From Fistulifera solaris (Eukaryota > Bacillariophyta > Bacillariophyceae > Naviculales > Stauroneidaceae), in NCBI GenBank assembly GCA_030295235.1, contig AP026180.1:62001-126000 (forward strand): DNA of 64,000 nucleotides, given 5' to 3'. The translations under genes and the position numbers were made by a program. The stretch's first letter is position 1. Every line of letters begins with the position of its first letter. Positions 56,173 through 64,000 of the stretch are shown here, in pieces. A model generated the notes under the pieces. It was not told the DNA's origin. It did no database searches and saw nothing but the letters and a program-made list of their open reading frames with translations.

Positions 56173-59100
56173 ATGGGCGTTCACGGATGGCCCTCTTTTC
56201 TCGTCGACTCGGAAATTCTTCCGCAATTGCCGAAAAATCCGATCGACTTGTTTGCGCTCGGCAACGCGGCGACGGCAGTCAGTCCTGTCATTCCTTCAAA
56301 TGTCGTGTTGCACATCGATGGGAGCGGGTTGGTGTACCAGCTGTTTCTGGTGGCTTCCGCACGTTATCAGCAGGGACCGTCGAAGGATCCTCTACCGGAT
56401 ACCTTTATGCCGCTGACTTACTTGGAGAAAGTTACACAGGAATTTATTACCAAATTGCAACAAGGAAAATACTCTTTCAAGATCTACTGGGATGGAGATC
56501 TTCGTCCGAAGTACAAGGCGCGAGAAGCCAAACGAAGAAAGCAGAAGCGCGATGAGGAGTGGTCGAACTTGTACGACTTTATTCAGACGGGACGAGTGCT
56601 CAACAACGATCAACGGAATTATCCTCTACCCCCTCTAGCTTTCACGCAAGTGAAATTGTCACTAAGGGAATACTCGATCTTTTGCAAAGGAGAAGCTGAT
56701 TATGAAATAGCCAAAGCTGCGATGCAGGCAGAACCGCAATCGTTGCAAGTCGTGGTGGGCAATGATTCCGACTTTTCGTTTTTCCGAGGAATATCCTACT
56801 TGCCCTTTAGTACATTGGCTTGGAATCCTTCCACACACACTCTACACGGGACGTGTATTCGGCGATCCGAGCTAATCAAAAAGCTAGATCTACCGGATGA
56901 AGCGGCACTAGTGGAAGTTGCTCTTGCTCTGGGAAATGATTTCGTTTCACCGGTTCTTTCCATCAATGAAGGAAAAAAGATCGAAAATAAGATTGCTTTC
57001 TTGCGTTCAAAGCCGGTTGGATATCAACTGCCCCCTGACTTGAAAGTGATTCCGCGCAAAGATGATGATGAGCCTTGGACACAGACCGAACTGGAAAACG
57101 CGATGGGGTTTTGTCGTCGATGGTACGACTTGGGGGAAATTGACGCTGATGACTGGTATGCACCCGAGCCAGAAGATACACTGATTCAAGTAGTTGATGA
57201 AGAAGTGGGGGATGTCATGTTCGTTCGACCTCAAGATGATCGCGTGCTGCCGGTCTTGCCATTCAAGGTGAGCAAGAAAACAGTGAAGTTCCGCCCTATT
57301 AAGGACAAATCTATGATCACTCCTGTTGCCAGGTGTTTGAACGAAGCTCTGGTGGACCGTAAAAGAATGGCGAAAACGGCGATCCATTTCTGTTACATCA
57401 GCTCCATATTCAGCTGTTGTCTACACTGTCCGTGTCCTCAAAACGGAAAGCCATCACGGAACGACCGACGTGGGATGATGTGACGTTGACCTATTGGATA
57501 GAAACCATACTTTCGAAAGCGTTCGATGCTAGCATGGATCTGAAAATGGCTCGTATCTTTAGACCAAGCAATACCTTCGACGCCGGCACTTATTTTTGGC
57601 TTTTGCAAAAGTCGCGCGAGAAGCTAACTGGAAAGTCAAAGGCGAAGAAAAAGGACGATAGTGAAGAGAAGAAAGCAGAAGAAGAAGCGTATGTACCGCA
57701 ACGATTACCGATTGACGAACACGAACAAGTTATTATAGACACTGTCAGAAAACATCGGGTATCGATTATTCAAGGAGAAACTGGTTGCGGTAAATCATCT
57801 CGCCTCCCCATTATGCTTCTAAAAGCTCCTCCACCCGACCCTGCACTTTCGGAAGTAGAAATGTTTGTTTCGCAGCCTCGGCGGATCGCAGCGAAGGCTC
57901 TAGTTGAACGTGTCCGGAGTATTGAACCGGAACTTGGACCGAAAATCGCTCTCCGAATGGGGCATGGAGTCCGTGAATATGAAAGTAAGCAAACCAAAGC
58001 TTGGTTCGTTACCACTGGCTACTTGGTTAGGGTACTGGCGAACGATCTGGGTCGTTTTAATACGGTCAGTCACTTAATAGTTGACGAGGTCCATGAACGG
58101 TCGGTTGATACGGATCTGCTATGCTGGCTGTGCCGGCGCCTATTGGCCTACAACCCCCACATTCGTCTCGTTCTCATGTCGGCAACGCTAGCAGCGTCGC
58201 TATATCAAGTTTATTTCGACGTGCGACATCCGCTTATTCATGTTGGAGCCAAACGATTCCCGCTGAAAGAGTACTACTTAGAAGATTTTTTGGATCCGAA
58301 ACAATTCAAACTGCCTCCGAGAGAAAAGAAGACCGTGGACGCACTAATCGCGAATTGCAAGACTACTAAATGTCGTGCTGCGCCATCTTATAACGTCATG
58401 GAAAAAGTATTTTCGTTTGTTACGTACCTGGCAACATCGCTCGGTCAGCCTGGCTCATCGGTTCTTATCTTTGTCCCCGGCATGAACGAGATCGTCTCGA
58501 TAACGGAGTTGGTTGAGCAAGTATATGTACCAGACGTCGTGTTCACTTGCTTTCCCATTCATTCCGACATTCCTTTCGAAGATCAGATGGAAGTATTTGC
58601 GCCACCCAAACCGGGGGAAATCAAAATTATGATTGCTACCAATGCAGCCGAATCCAGTGTTACGCTTCCCGACTGCGACCACGTTATCTGCCTAGGATTA
58701 TGCAAGCAGATTGTATACAACCAGTTAAGTCACAGGCAAATGCTTCTCCCTACGTGGATTTCTCGAGCGTCGGCTACACAGCGTGCTGGTCGAACATCGA
58801 GAGTTCGACCTGGTACTGTGTATCGCATGTATACTCGTGACATCTTTGAGAGGCACATGGATGAGTTCGAACCAGGAGAAATGCGACGCATTCCATTGGA
58901 CTCCGTCATACTGATGTTGAAGCAAATTGTCGAATCAGAAGAGTCGGTCAGCAAGATACTAAGCGAATGTTTGGAGCCACCTGATATGTCGACAATCGAA
59001 AGATCATATGACAGTCTACACAAGTCGCATTTCTTGACGCAGCCGGACGATGAAGGTACCATCACTAATCTCGGAAATTTCGTCGCAGCGCTGGGAATAG

Positions 59101-61146
59101 ATTTGACCCTTGGATCGCTGATAGGTGAGAACAATGTCGATCTATATTATTACACTCAACCCGGATATTTGTCTAACAATAGCTCTTCGCGCAGGTTTGG
59201 GTATTCAATTTGGCTGTGGCCCAGAAGCAGTCCAGCTTGCTGGGGTCTTATCATTTCCACAGGCCCCTTGGATTATGAGCAATTCTCTGATTCATGAACC
59301 CAGTGACTTCAATGACCAAGTCGCTAAGGCCTATGTATCGCGTTGTCACTTCGACGCAAATTTGTTCTCAGAACCACTCGCTGTGATGAATCTTATGTGG
59401 GAGTATTCCCATGCGCCGAGAAAAGGTAGTTTCTGTCGTCAATATTCTTTGTACGAACCTCGACTTCGACGCATGGTAAACGTATGCGAAAATCTTCAGA
59501 GGCGTGTTGCCGATTTCATACAGCTTCCCGCGACAGCTCTCGACTTGGAAGCACCACCGGTTTTTATGCCTCATGCTAAGATCTGTTTGTTGCGAATCCT
59601 ACAGGCATGGGTGTTTCACGACAGTGTCATTCAAAGTAGTCCTCGTGAACATTCCGGCGGTGCATCGGAAGATGCGTATGCCATAGAACTACTCAAGAAG
59701 AGTGATCCGATTGAAAATAAACACCTTCAGAAGTTACTCCACCCTAAGAGACACCCTTATCAGCTGCAGAAGGCAAAGAAAACAGAGCAGATGGGGACGT
59801 TCTCACTGGGTGATAAAGGTTTCGATGTTGAGGCTTTTCACGAGCGAATGTTATCATATGGCACCGAAAAGAACCACGATGTCATATGGTGGGAGTGTAG
59901 CGGCCAACGCACCTTATGCATCCAACGAGAAGCTAGTGCCAAGTTTGCAAACCTGAGCGACAATACAACGTCTGCCTTGTCGGCGAGTTTGCAAACTGAA
60001 ATCGCGATGCGGGTGACCAATAAAACCAAAGGTCGCTCCGAAAGACCTAGTGGACTTTGGGTTATCAGTAAGAGTGGTTTGGAAAAGAAGAAAAGTGGAC
60101 TGAAAATTTGGATTTGCTATGTATTTGAGGGTAAGAGTATCAATAACAAACGCTGGAACAACATATGTTTTCACTTGGAGGAGAGAATAAAGGCGAACTC
60201 GTCGAGTGGCCTTCACATAAAGGTTTTTCACACAGAAAAGCAATCGAGTAAGGGAAGCTTTTCTTTAGATGCCTTCGGTGGCGCTATCTCAATCGTGGAT
60301 TTACAAGATATGTTTGCTTCGGCGAGCGTGCAGATTACTCGTCACAAATTGCAAGAATCGGAGCAGAGAATTGTTTTTCATCAAACAGAAAATAAGCCAC
60401 TTGGTCCTTCGGGCCAAGCGTCGGGCGACATTGCAAACTCCAGTTGGGCCCGTCCTCCTGTGCAATCAAATGCTCCCGAAGGTGCTCGATTACTCAGCGT
60501 TCTAGCTTCAGGAAGGAGAAAGGCTCACATGGTCCGGATGGACTCGGACGCTGAGAAAAATGACGGCAATGACAAAGAGTATGTGGATATGCTTTTGAAT
60601 CGCGAAAAAACGAGTTTAGCCGTGCGATGGAAACGTGCTGGCAATAATGTTTACGTGAATGAAAATTCCGTACCCGCATCCGCACTTCCTCTCGGAGGTT
60701 CTAACAGCCTTTTTTGTGTCTGTGCTAATGCACTTGAAATCAAAGGTGGAGGAGTTCGGGTTGAAGGTTTAACGCTTCTGCCTCAAGGCCGGTTCTTTTT
60801 CATGTTGTGTCGCCTTACATTTGGTTTATTCCAGGAGGCGAACCTTTTGGATGGGACTTTGATCGACAAGAGCGTTACTTGGATCACTCAAGCGAACCAA
60901 AACGAAACAGCTGATAAAAATCTTGTTCGTGAACGTGTGACAAAAGCAGTCCAGTTTCATGAGGGAGCCATTGCAATGGGCGAAGATTTAGTTTGTTACC
61001 CTGATAAAGTCGTCGAACTGTTGCAAATTTTCGATAAGGTGGATGGCCATGAAACGAAAGCCTGGAAGTCACTTTACTCCAATCCATTCACAAAGAAGAA
61101 TATCAAAAACGCGAAATATGTTAGAAAAGCTACGCCGGAATATTAA
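56173..61146 (+). CDS. XPG/asteroid-like PIN nuclease fused to a DExH-box helicase (one-base break at 57361)
   Basis: Exons are 56173-59124 and 59195-61146 (GTGAGA donor, GCGCAG acceptor); 1634 residues after one correction. Residues 1 to about 370 are an XPG-type PIN domain: MGVHGWPSFLVDS, VVLHIDGSGLVYQLF (metal Asp), CKGEADYEIAKAA and VVVGNDSDFSFF (acidic site), and ALGNDFVSPVL. A linker with LLHQLHIQLLSTL follows. The helicase has Walker A GETGCGKSS near residue 535, SQPRRIAAKALVERV, DEVHERSVDTD, MSATL, FVPGMNEI, TNAAESSVTLPDCD and QRAGRTSRVRPG. A long C-terminal region of about 500 residues is unassigned. The two halves meet at AAAA 57361-57364; one more A gives RKKNGENGDPFLLHQ. A separate-genes reading is less likely because the helicase frame has no good start and continuity is restored by one base. 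Confidence 0.85.
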
Positions 61147-61215: not shown

Positions 61216-62856
61216 TTAAGATAGTTCATAGAATGATTCTAATTGCCGACAAGGAGGGCAAATAAAACTGCGTTCATTGTAGTCGTCGGCATCACCTGCA
61301 ATTTCTAAACAATGAGTACAGCAAAAGTGGTTGCACAGATCGCAATAGTAACCTTGCTCTGGATCTTTCCCATCGCACGAAAAACAATCGACAGTAATAG
61401 CTGACTTCTCACCGGGTCGATAGGTGTGCATCCCGTTGGAAATATTGTATTTGCTGTACTCGCAAAGCGTGTGCTCAATTTCTTTTAAAGCGAGTCGTCT
61501 CCCGTCAAAGTACGGGAATTCGAGCCCGAGAATCTGAAATGTATTTTCTTGCAGAGCGGTCAAAGTGCGCGCGAGCTGCAGGGATTTCTCAATTCCACTT
61601 AACATCTCCAGTGATTTTTTATTTTCACAGAATATGAGCTTGAGACCCTCTATTGTTGGTCGATTGTTAGATAGTGATGCACCATTGGAGCACAAGGACA
61701 ATCGTCGATCACTTACCCTTAGCCCCCGGTCCAAGTACGCAAAAATTGTAGTCAATTTTCAGGCACCCACAAGTTTCCATGTCACATAAAATTTGCCACG
61801 CAAAGAAATCTCCCACTAACTTCATGCCCCGGAGAACGTCCAGTTTTTCTTTCGATTTTTTTGCCGCACAGAAGTTGTCGACAATCTTGTCTAACTTCTT
61901 CAGAGTAAGATTCAGTGCCATCATATACGGCTCAAAGCCACCCACATTATGTGCCCCCGTGAAAAATGCGGATGTCGCTTGACCACGATACACGCGGGCT
62001 CTCCGACTGTAGGCTTGCAAGGACGCGTCGGTCGGTTCCGCAAACCCAATGTTTTCAAACGTCTCGACACGGTTCACGAGCCGATACATGTACGAACGCC
62101 AAAGGACTTGTTTCGTCCATTCCTTATGACTCCAGGACCGCGGTATACGGCGTGGATTGTCTGTTTGTTTGTCGCTCGACGAAAAGAATAACTCCAAGAT
62201 GGACGCTTTGAGAAAAATGGTGCCCCGGTCGAGCTCCCGATAGACATTGCAAAACGAATGACGGGACATTCGTTCATTCAAAGAATACGGAAAATTTTCC
62301 GGATACTGCGTCTTTCGTTCCCACATTCGTTGTCGTTCGTACGCAAAAGATAAAATTGCAGAATGTGCAGTGACACGTGAGCGGAAAAAATTCCCGGAAT
62401 GAACGATGCCTCGTGTTGAAAGACTTTTGTTCAAGTCCTTGCAAGCCAAATAAACAGTTTGTTCGTCGAATGTCTTGTGCCTCTGTTGAATAGTTGGTTC
62501 TCTTTGGTATATCGATCATCGTCATCCGAAGGAGTTCGTCATCATCCGCTTCGATGGCAGTTTCCTCATCGCCGTCATCATAAATGATACTAACAAAGGA
62601 GCCTTCAACAAACTCTACCGTTCCATAGAAGTAAACGCCATCGAATTTCTGAATCCGAAAATCGCGTAAGTTTCGATTGCAAGCAGAGCGCAAAACTCGC
62701 TGAAAGATAAAACAACTCGCCTACCTTTTTGATTCTTTGACCGAATTGAAACGTAGGATAAGGTAACTCGCGTTTGAGGACAATGGGGCGGGATAATACC
62801 TCGTCGGCGTGTACACGAGGAAGCTGAGCATCGGAAGGATGCTTACTTGTTGACAT
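61216..62856 (-). CDS. Putative DNA base-hypermodification enzyme: Tudor-like, HMUDK/AGPT-type and PHD-like domains (one-base break near 62504)
   Basis: Exons are 62856-62725, 62648-61717 and 61649-61216; donors GTAGGC and GTAAGT, acceptors TTCAG and AATAG. Corrected length is 498 residues. Residues about 35-95 are Tudor-like: FGQRIKKKFDGVYFYGTVEF, VSIIYDDGDEE. Residues about 130-385 match the helical family of phage 5-hydroxymethyl-dU DNA kinases and alpha-glutamyl/putrescinyl-thymine pyrophosphorylases: FAYERQRMWERK, FCNVYRELDRGTIFL, LWRSYMYRLVNRVETFENIG, FFTGAHNVGG, VGDFFAWQILCDM and VLGPGAKEGLKLIF. The C-terminus has a C4HC3-type PHD-like cluster: CFSC, YYCDLCNHFCCTHC, ICPPC. The frame changes near TTT 62503-62505 (one base extra), between Tudor and enzyme domains. 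Known members act on hydroxymethyluracil in DNA; reader domains point to nuclear chromatin. Activity here is inferred. Confidence 0.85.
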
Positions 62857-62934: not shown

Positions 62935-64000
62935 GCGTCAAAACTTTCCATGAGACGTTGGATTTTCACTATAACGCAGAGTGTTGGTTCAAGCCAACCC
63001 AGACTGAATTGCAGTTATGAACCGAACAATAAAGGGTTCCGTTTTGCGCCTGTCGCGTCCATCAAATCTTATTCACATGAGAATAAAAATATTAGTTCGG
63101 GTAAATAGAGTCGCAGCAATGATTCTAGTGTTTCTTCGATTTTTCACCTCGAAAAACCAACGCATCGACAACGTGGATTTTCACTATGACGCGGAGTGTT
63201 GGTTTACGCTAACGAAGACTGGATTGCAACCATGAACCGAACAATAAAGGGTTCCGTTTTGCGCCTCTCGCGTCCATCCAATCTCAATCACATGAAAATA
63301 AAAATATTAGTTCGGGTAAATAGAGTCGCAGCAATGATTCTAGTGTTTCTTCAATTTTTCACCTCGAAAAGCCAACGCATCGACACCTTGAATTTTCACT
63401 ATAAGACGGAGTGTTGGTTTACGCTAACGAAGACTGGATTGCAGTCATGAACCAAACAATAAAGGGTTCCGTTTTGCGCCTGTCGCGTCCATCCAATCTT
63501 ACTCACTTGAGAATAAAAATATTAGTTCGGGTAAATAGAGTCGCAGCAATGATTCTAGTGTTTCTTCAATTTTTCACCTCGAAAAACCAACGCATCGACA
63601 ACGTGGATTTTCACTATAAGACGGAGTGCTGGTTTACGCTAACGAAGACTGGATTGCAACCATGAACCGAACAACAAAGGGTTCCGTTTTGCGCCTGTCG
63701 CGTCCATCCAAATCTCAATCACATGAAAATAAAAATATTAGTTCGGGTAAATAGAGTCGCAGCAATGATTCTAGTGTTTCTTCAATTTTTCACCTCGAAA
63801 AACCGACGGATCGACACCTTGAATTTTCACTATAAGACGGAGTGTTGGTTTACGCTAACGAAGACTGGATTGCAACCATGAACCGAACAACAAAGGGTTC
63901 CGTTTTGCGCCTTTCGCATCCGTTCAATGTCATTCGAATAAAATTATAATTACGGGTATATAGAATTGCGATAATTATGATTTTGAACGATATGTGCAAA
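62935..64000 (+). repeat. 215-bp satellite, five copies, running off the window (family B)
   Basis: AAAGGGTTCCGTTTTGCGCC recurs at 63031, 63246, 63461, 63676 and 63892, a period of 215-216 bp. Units also share GGGTAAATAGAGTCGCAGCA, GTGTTTCTTCAATTTTTCAC and GAGTGTTGGTTTACGCTAAC. Copies are about 95 percent alike; the first is the most diverged. Reverse complement of the cluster at 43338-44293. Lies directly upstream of the base-modification gene. Confidence 0.92.

What the first reader, a model, noticed from the sequence alone, without database searches (positions are those of the whole stretch)
61216..62856. Candidate eukaryotic DNA base hypermodification enzyme with chromatin reader domains
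The middle domain carries the phage HMUDK/AGPT-pyrophosphorylase signature series, including xxYERxRxWERK, NVYRELDRGT, LLWRxxxYRLxN and PGAKxGL. In phages these enzymes act on 5-hydroxymethyluracil in DNA. Computational surveys by the Aravind group reported eukaryotic relatives fused to chromatin domains, but to my knowledge none has been characterised in a diatom. Here the domain sits between a Tudor-like module and a PHD-like finger, which would direct a base-modifying activity to marked chromatin. It implies the cell also makes the hydroxymethylated base, for example with a TET/JBP oxygenase. Domain assignment is from recalled family patterns; activity and substrate are inferred.
Basis: partly seen in the sequence, partly recalled or inferred. 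Interest (0 to 1): 0.92.

Follow-up and report, generated by a model that had tools for sequence, protein, structure and literature searches.

The report
Diatom chromatin protein with phage DNA-modification domain
A diatom nuclear gene joins two likely chromatin-reading domains to a domain that viruses of bacteria use when they chemically alter the thymines of their DNA, which hints at an unstudied thymine-modification or -recognition system in some algae and copepods.

Summary
Minus-strand gene 61216-62856 has three exons and encodes a Tudor-like domain, a full HMUDK_hel domain (PF18723; 79.5 and 27.9 bits in two exons, cut-off 25) and a PHD-like finger. The frame changes between Tudor and HMUDK_hel are most likely assembly errors: a nearly identical database protein (P0002) reads through both. 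The genome is almost certainly that of Fistulifera solaris, an allodiploid diatom. Its two homoeologs differ with Ka/Ks 0.18 (0.11 in the HMUDK core), and this copy keeps 30 of 30 near-invariant family columns.

In phages the kinase is a separate P-loop domain (PF18748), beside or fused to HMUDK_hel; HMUDK_hel also occurs where no such kinase was found, so its own chemistry is unproven. It is a distant homologue of amino acid:DNA transferases. No match to Tet_JBP, the kinase or the transferase was found in this genome.

Eukaryotic members fall in one clade (diatoms, a pelagophyte, copepods), several with Tudor, PHD or chromo domains. Best reading: a chromatin-targeted protein engaging 5-hydroxymethyluracil-type bases, probably an enzyme, possibly only a reader. 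The family is known; I did not find this architecture in print (searches limited).

The parts
62725..62856 (-). Exon 1: start codon, N-terminal tail and first strand of the Tudor-like domain (44 codons)
   Evidence: the junction GQRIKK|KFDG agrees with homoeolog model P0001
62649..62724 (-). Intron 1, 76 nt, GT-AG
62510..62648 (-). Rest of the Tudor-like domain (PTM/DIR17 type), start of exon 2
   Evidence: PF21743 13.9 bits here, 20.8 bits in P0001, cut-off 27.2; 20 of 115 relatives match at E<=0.01, best 3.4e-10
62345..62430 (-). Two single-base frame changes (near 62428 and in the run 62345-62348), read as assembly errors
   Evidence: first site, against the homoeolog; P0002 holds the window's peptide blocks in one frame; P0001 is open at the second site where this assembly's C29 copy is not
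61717..62359 (-). HMUDK_hel domain, part in exon 2 (NVYRELDRGT, YRLVNR, GAHN, GDFFAWQILCD, LGPGAK)
   Evidence: PF18723 79.5 bits, E 3.5e-22; 30 of 30 near-invariant columns kept over the whole domain
61650..61716 (-). Intron 2, 67 nt, GT-AG
   Evidence: the protein across it (GPGAKEGLK) agrees with P0001
61447..61649 (-). HMUDK_hel domain, part in exon 3 (LKEIEHTLCEYSKY)
   Evidence: PF18723 27.9 bits, profile 210-271
61249..61386 (-). PHD-like zinc finger, all-Cys variant
   Evidence: PF00628 10 bits, below cut-off 24; family profile finds PHD-type fingers in the PDB, best E 2.3e-6; Cys spacing
61216..61218 (-). Stop codon

Best explanation
A nuclear chromatin protein in which a phage-related domain of the HMUDK_hel/ADDT superfamily engages a hydroxymethyluracil-type base in DNA, most likely as a group-transfer enzyme on that base, while the Tudor-like and PHD-like modules place it on marked chromatin. 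Shown: domain family, one intact gene, purifying selection, conserved core residues, distant homology to ADDT, one eukaryotic clade with several kinds of chromatin-domain fusion. Inferred: nuclear location, binding to 5-hmU, catalysis, and what is transferred.
For: PF18723 match. 30 of 30 near-invariant columns kept; 17 of these 30 are charged, polar, His, Cys or Tyr. Ka/Ks 0.18 over 489 codons, 0.106 over 209 HMUDK codons. Profile-profile match to ADDT: score 44.5, P 1.5e-5, probability 79.7%, 136 columns; best of 100 column-shuffled controls 25.0, reversed 17.1; a profile of 16 eukaryote-type rows alone 47.5. Also 5 of 115 members hit PF18724 at E<=0.01, best 1.8e-4. In phages the domain travels with 5-hmdU synthesis: M6 operon, Pam3, fusion to the kinase in Goe26; a thymidylate-synthase-like gene within 6 kb in 8 of the 8 viral loci that head the match list (L036-L043; two of them look like near copies) and in 24 of the 80 kept. 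Phages Montesquieu and Golden have a relative of M6 gp055 and a thymidylate synthase but no kinase, TAGT or ADDT match, which suggests an activity of its own. Chromatin domains in relatives: Tudor 20 of 115, chromo 65.7 bits in P0154, a PHD-like Cys/His pattern after the domain in 59 of 176 proteins, fragments and phage-type proteins included in the 176.
Against: No biochemical test of HMUDK_hel alone was seen in the passages I could read. In Goe26 it is fused to a kinase that would supply catalysis. Phage Tonitrus has ADDT, a TET-like protein and another kinase, with no HMUDK_hel among the four genes scanned, so the domain is not needed for every such pathway. No Tet_JBP, 2OG-FeII_Oxy_6, PF18748 or PF18724 match in this genome, so source of substrate and partner enzyme are unknown. 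The PF18748 profile misses some phages, phiW-14 among them, so 'kinase-free' phages may have unseen kinases. The phage-only profile matches ADDT more weakly (34.2, P 6.2e-4).
Confidence: 0.45

Rival explanations
1. One reading: the domain binds 5-hmU (formed by oxidation of thymine or by an unknown oxygenase) without changing it, and with Tudor and PHD recruits other factors.
For: In phages the domain is fused to or beside a kinase in some systems and beside TAGT glycosyltransferases in LuckyBarnes: a constant module with changing enzymes looks like a base-recognition unit. No partner enzymes found in the diatom. The other recognisable domains of the diatom protein are reader-like.
Against: Strict conservation of many polar residues and homology to a transferase family fit catalysis better; phages without a kinase, TAGT or ADDT match.
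Confidence: 0.33
2. Subunit of a kinase: it partners with an unrecognised P-loop nucleotide kinase in the nucleus and makes phosphorylated 5-hmU.
For: Pfam name; kinase/HMUDK_hel adjacency in M6 and Pam3, and in Ab18 with a sub-threshold kinase match; fusion in Goe26.
Against: No PF18748 match in the genome (the profile rings in 2 of 2 phages and 3 of 8). With my own four-sequence kinase profile, a kinase lies within 6 kb of only 10 of 80 viral loci. A kinase of another family would be missed: phage Tonitrus carries Ploopntkinase3.
Confidence: 0.1
3. Defence or repair: it detects 5-hmU in foreign (viral) or damaged DNA.
For: A 2026 study names a 5-hmdU DNA kinase in the legend of a figure of systems tested for defence, and aGPT-Pplase in a predicted, untested system (passages of PMC13092281).
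Against: No defence or repair domain was recognised in the protein; PADLOC gives no match for P0001; Tudor and PHD suggest native chromatin.
Confidence: 0.08
4. The domain has lost base-modification chemistry and serves as an ordinary DNA-binding or structural part.
For: No known partners found in the genome.
Against: 30 of 30 near-invariant columns kept; Ka/Ks is low in the HMUDK core, 0.106 against 0.18 for the whole.
Confidence: 0.04

Closest known systems
Pfam PF18723 HMUDK_hel / 'aGPT-Pplase clade 1' (Pseudomonas phage M6 gp055, Pam3_50)
   Same: Same domain, scored above cut-off, same core motifs; phage members sit in thymidine-hypermodification operons
   Different: M6 gp055 (323 aa) gives no domain but this one, so no chromatin modules; M6-type sequences are divergent (NIFRELDTVT for NVYRELDRGT)
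5-hmdU DNA kinase proper (PF18748 HMUDK_HMUD1; M6 gp054)
   Same: Lies beside or fused to HMUDK_hel in some phages
   Different: P-loop kinase; no such domain in the diatom protein and no match in its genome
Amino acid:DNA transferase ADDT (PF18724, M6 gp051, 'aGPT-Pplase2' or 'clade 3' in phage records)
   Same: Distant homology over the C-terminal half, shared VGxF/FGPW stretch and E-x-x-L-C
   Different: Not a member: the diatom pieces and P0001 give no PF18724 match
Kinetoplastid base J system (JBP1/2 + JGT)
   Same: Also a eukaryotic thymine-derived base made through 5-hmU (review passages, PMC11065753)
   Different: Uses JBP oxygenases and a glucosyltransferase; no Tet_JBP match here

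Membership tests
HMUDK_hel (PF18723) | Score above the curated cut-off over the whole profile | tested here: met
   79.5 + 27.9 bits over profile 6-271 of 281, cut-off 25; homoeolog 122.1 bits
HMUDK_hel (PF18723) | Near-invariant core residues kept | tested here: met
   30 of 30 columns that are at least 90% conserved among 109 relatives (M6-type phage proteins are not in that set)
HMUDK_hel (PF18723) | Acts on or binds 5-hmU in DNA | not testable with these tools
   needs protein biochemistry
5-hmdU DNA kinase (functional kinase, PF18748) | P-loop kinase domain in the protein or as partner gene | tested here: not met
   none in the protein; no PF18748 match in six frames of the genome. The profile rings in 2 of 2 phages and 3 of 8; split or other-family kinases could be missed
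ADDT / amino acid:DNA transferase (PF18724) | Score above PF18724 cut-off | tested here: not met
   no match in the diatom pieces or P0001; superfamily kinship only
Tudor (PTM_DIR17, PF21743) | Score above cut-off 27.2 | tested here: inconclusive
   13.9 bits here, 20.8 in homoeolog; 20 of 115 relatives match at E<=0.01
PHD finger | C4HC3 zinc ligands and profile match | tested here: inconclusive
   eight-ligand spacing present but Cys in the His place; 10 bits, cut-off 24; family profile best E 2.3e-6 to PHD-type fingers in the PDB
HhH-GPD DNA glycosylase fold | Profile match beyond the hairpin motif | tested here: inconclusive
   hhalign probability 8.5%, 13 columns only, template profile of six sequences

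The most novel reading that the evidence does not exclude
Diatoms, pelagophytes and copepods run a native nuclear system, acquired once from a phage-like source, that makes or reads a thymine-derived hypermodified base at histone-marked chromatin, without TET/JBP: an unknown eukaryotic DNA mark.
Probability: 0.3. Interest if true: 0.9.

Novelty: new variant of a known kind. Interest (0 to 1): 0.6.

Why it matters
[quoted passage not shown] A conserved, selected, chromatin-linked member of the phage thymidine-hypermodification families in a diatom that can be edited by CRISPR RNP in both homoeologs (abstract of PMC13276009) makes the question of further eukaryotic thymine modifications directly testable by knockout and LC-MS. 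The copepod relatives would extend it to animals.

Tried and rejected
SRA domain in the neighbouring helicase: the convergent gene 57363-61146 matched PF02182 SAD_SRA at E 2.8e-4, 21.1 bits, below cut-off 30.7, which would have been a second modified-base reader beside ours. Rejected: none of the 77 homologues listed carries a precomputed PF02182, 0 of 8 homologues scanned match it, and that half of the gene has no PDB sequence match.

HhH-GPD glycosylase fold: suggested by a GVGxFxA-like stretch; the profile comparison gave only 13 columns. Left open.

Pseudogene reading of the frame changes: rejected by P0002 and by Ka/Ks.

PADLOC: no match for three proteins tried. NCBIfam: no meaningful match for four. 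PHROGs: a family of unknown function, and a weaker one labelled terminase small subunit. A direct PDB sequence search with the phage-type profile A3 gave no related structure.

Literature: Iyer et al. 2013, Lee et al. 2018 and Lee et al. 2022 are not held; what I say of them beyond cited passages is recalled. Library searches listed no paper on this gene or on eukaryotic HMUDK_hel, but several listings were cut (20 of 28, 15 of 78, 10 of 40) and I judged by titles and abstract starts. Passages seen: PMC6449724, PMC6457204, PMC13092281, PMC9476957, PMC11955845, PMC5935921, PMC11065753. Abstract and outline: PMC13276009. PMC11071213: a term search only, no passage returned. I recall that the Iyer abstract names stramenopile algae among eukaryotes with such systems, so the domain's presence in them is probably not new.

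Full report
Observation. The gene lies on the minus strand at 61216-62856, with exon 1 62725-62856, a 76-nt intron, exon 2 62648-61717, a 67-nt intron and exon 3 61649-61216. Pfam finds PF18723 HMUDK_hel in exon 2 (79.5 bits, E 3.5e-22) and its continuation in exon 3 (27.9 bits); profile positions 6-209 and 210-271 join exactly over the intron. A six-frame search of the genome (51.7 Mb, 61 contigs, best candidates scored) gives five pieces, in this gene and in one other on contig C29.

Organism and copies. The best database match is Fistulifera solaris FisN_24Lh077 (P0001, 82% identity), which corresponds to the C29 copy as read by eye in the open frames. F. solaris is an allopolyploid diatom with two subgenomes (passages of PMC5935921; taxonomy), so the two copies are most likely homoeologs; the convergent helicase gene is duplicated with ours. 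The two copies are 87% identical in DNA, introns and short flanks included (1459 of 1684 aligned bases). Over 489 codons Ka is 0.077 and Ks 0.422, ratio 0.18; over 209 codons of the HMUDK core the ratio is 0.106 (codons next to indels were left out). Single blocks vary, from 0.09 to 0.64. Both copies are therefore kept as proteins.

Frame. In this assembly the Tudor part and the HMUDK part lie in different frames. A JGI-derived protein from another sequence, P0002, contains four peptide blocks of the window, from the Tudor domain well into HMUDK_hel, in order and in one frame; in the tree it is 99% identical to the window row over 196 columns. P0001 is open at the second site, where this assembly's C29 copy is not. 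The frame changes are thus most simply assembly errors. Relatives such as P0012, P0016 and P0024 show the same order Tudor, HMUDK_hel, Cys-rich finger.

Flanking modules. Tudor: below cut-off here, but 20 of 115 relatives match PF21743 at E<=0.01 (115 of the 120 hits were aligned). Finger: the 21-sequence profile A1 finds PHD-type fingers among solved structures, best E 2.3e-6 for a Bromodomain-containing protein 1 construct and 2.5e-5 for PHD finger protein 21A. By Pfam, PHD models match few of the 115 (PHD 4, PHD_2 3, others 1-2), so many fingers are divergent. The window's finger has Cys in the place of the PHD histidine, while the pelagophyte P0025 and the copepod-side P0122 and P0174 have His.

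Phage relatives. tblastn with relative P0047 found 447 phage records, with M6 gp055 113. In M6 the order is ADDT, PLP enzyme, radical SAM, PF18748 kinase, HMUDK_hel, Nmad5, a short ORF, thymidylate-synthase-like; the SN1 paper lists the same cassette and calls this gene aGPT-Pplase1 (passages of PMC9476957). M6 DNA carries 5-(2-aminoethyl)deoxyuridine, thought to arise from 5-hmdU after phosphorylation by a 5hmdU DNA kinase (passages of PMC6449724). In Bacillus phage Goe26 kinase and HMUDK_hel are one protein. Yet of eight further phage records three match PF18748, two of them above cut-off. LuckyBarnes has HMUDK_hel beside two TAGT glycosyltransferases. Montesquieu and Golden show no kinase, TAGT or ADDT match. 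phiW-14 also shows no PF18748, although by recall its pathway needs a kinase, so the profile misses some. With profiles built here from 2 to 9 sequences (the kinase one from four), the 80 viral loci kept of 377, with flanks up to 6 kb, show a thymidylate-synthase-like gene in 24, kinase in 10, TAGT in 7 and ADDT in 5; 58 prokaryotic genome loci with flanks up to 5 kb show 17, 7, 2 and 5. 31 of the 80 viral loci have at least one of these or Nmad5, so 49 have none in the stretch held. The commonest companion seen is 5-hmdU-type synthesis, not the kinase. In Tonitrus, which has ADDT, a TET-like protein and a Ploopntkinase3 kinase, none of the four genes scanned is HMUDK_hel.

Kinship with ADDT. 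Profile comparison gives score 44.5, P 1.5e-5, probability 79.7% over 136 columns. One hundred column-shuffled controls reach at most 25.0 and the reversed control 17.1; a phage-only profile gives 34.2 (P 6.2e-4) and one of 16 eukaryote-type rows 47.5. Five of 115 relatives match PF18724 directly at E<=0.01. This supports a common superfamily, and by inference a shared pocket. The HhH glycosylase comparison stayed at motif level.

Eukaryotic spread. A second search found relatives in the copepod Eurytemora carolleeae, in transcripts with prefix GFUD (by recall Calanus), and one of unnamed source with a chromo domain (P0154). In a FastTree of 124 rows, all eight rows whose source name marks a eukaryote (P0001, P0016, P0024, P0025, P0110, P0122, P0124, P0174) fall in one 68-row clade with local support 100, and all nine named phage rows fall outside it. 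Left out of the tree: 14 long or odd rows, 9 rows with under 200 residues after trimming, and 39 of the 56 new proteins. FastTree support is local only and long branches exist, so single acquisition is likely but not proven. Most rows of the clade have no named source.

Missing partners. No match in the genome to Tet_JBP, 2OG-FeII_Oxy_6, PF18748 or ADDT; a phage TET-like protein as query also found nothing. Controls: Tet_JBP rings in phage Tonitrus, just below the family cut-off, PF18748 in two phages, ADDT in M6 and phiW-14. PF20515 has no positive control. The search is exon by exon and could miss split genes.

Judgement. Membership in HMUDK_hel is secure. Calling it a kinase or a transferase is not. 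The most likely role is a chromatin-directed protein acting on a 5-hmU-type base, with catalysis somewhat more likely than mere reading because of the residue conservation, the ADDT kinship and the phages without a recognised kinase.

Noticed in passing
window 62958-63932: Tandem array, 4.5 copies of a 215-bp unit, 92% matches, just upstream of the gene's start. I did not see it in the roughly 0.7 kb read upstream of the homoeolog; no repeat search was run there.
   Followed up: partly
window 57363-61146 (+): Convergent neighbour: DExH helicase (DEAD, Helicase_C) with a GT-AG intron at 59125-59182; the diatom homologue P0204 also carries XPG nuclease domains. A weak SAD/SRA match in its C-terminal half is not supported by homologues.
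   Followed up: yes
P0154, P0122, P0174 (rows on the copepod side of the tree): HMUDK_hel with a chromo domain (P0154, 65.7 bits) or a PHD match just below cut-off (P0122, 21.6 of 24 bits) in a clade that includes copepod proteins; not in a paper listed by my searches.
   Followed up: partly
L011 4204-5828 (Brevibacterium phage LuckyBarnes): HMUDK_hel directly beside two TAGT-family glycosyltransferases and near a thymidylate synthase, with no PF18748 match in the record: may point to a sugar-modified hydroxymethyluracil route that uses the helical domain.
   Followed up: partly
G000 contig C29 homoeolog (L003, L174) and window: Several single-base length differences in or near homopolymers break reading frames in both genes, suggesting residual indel errors in this assembly.
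   Followed up: partly
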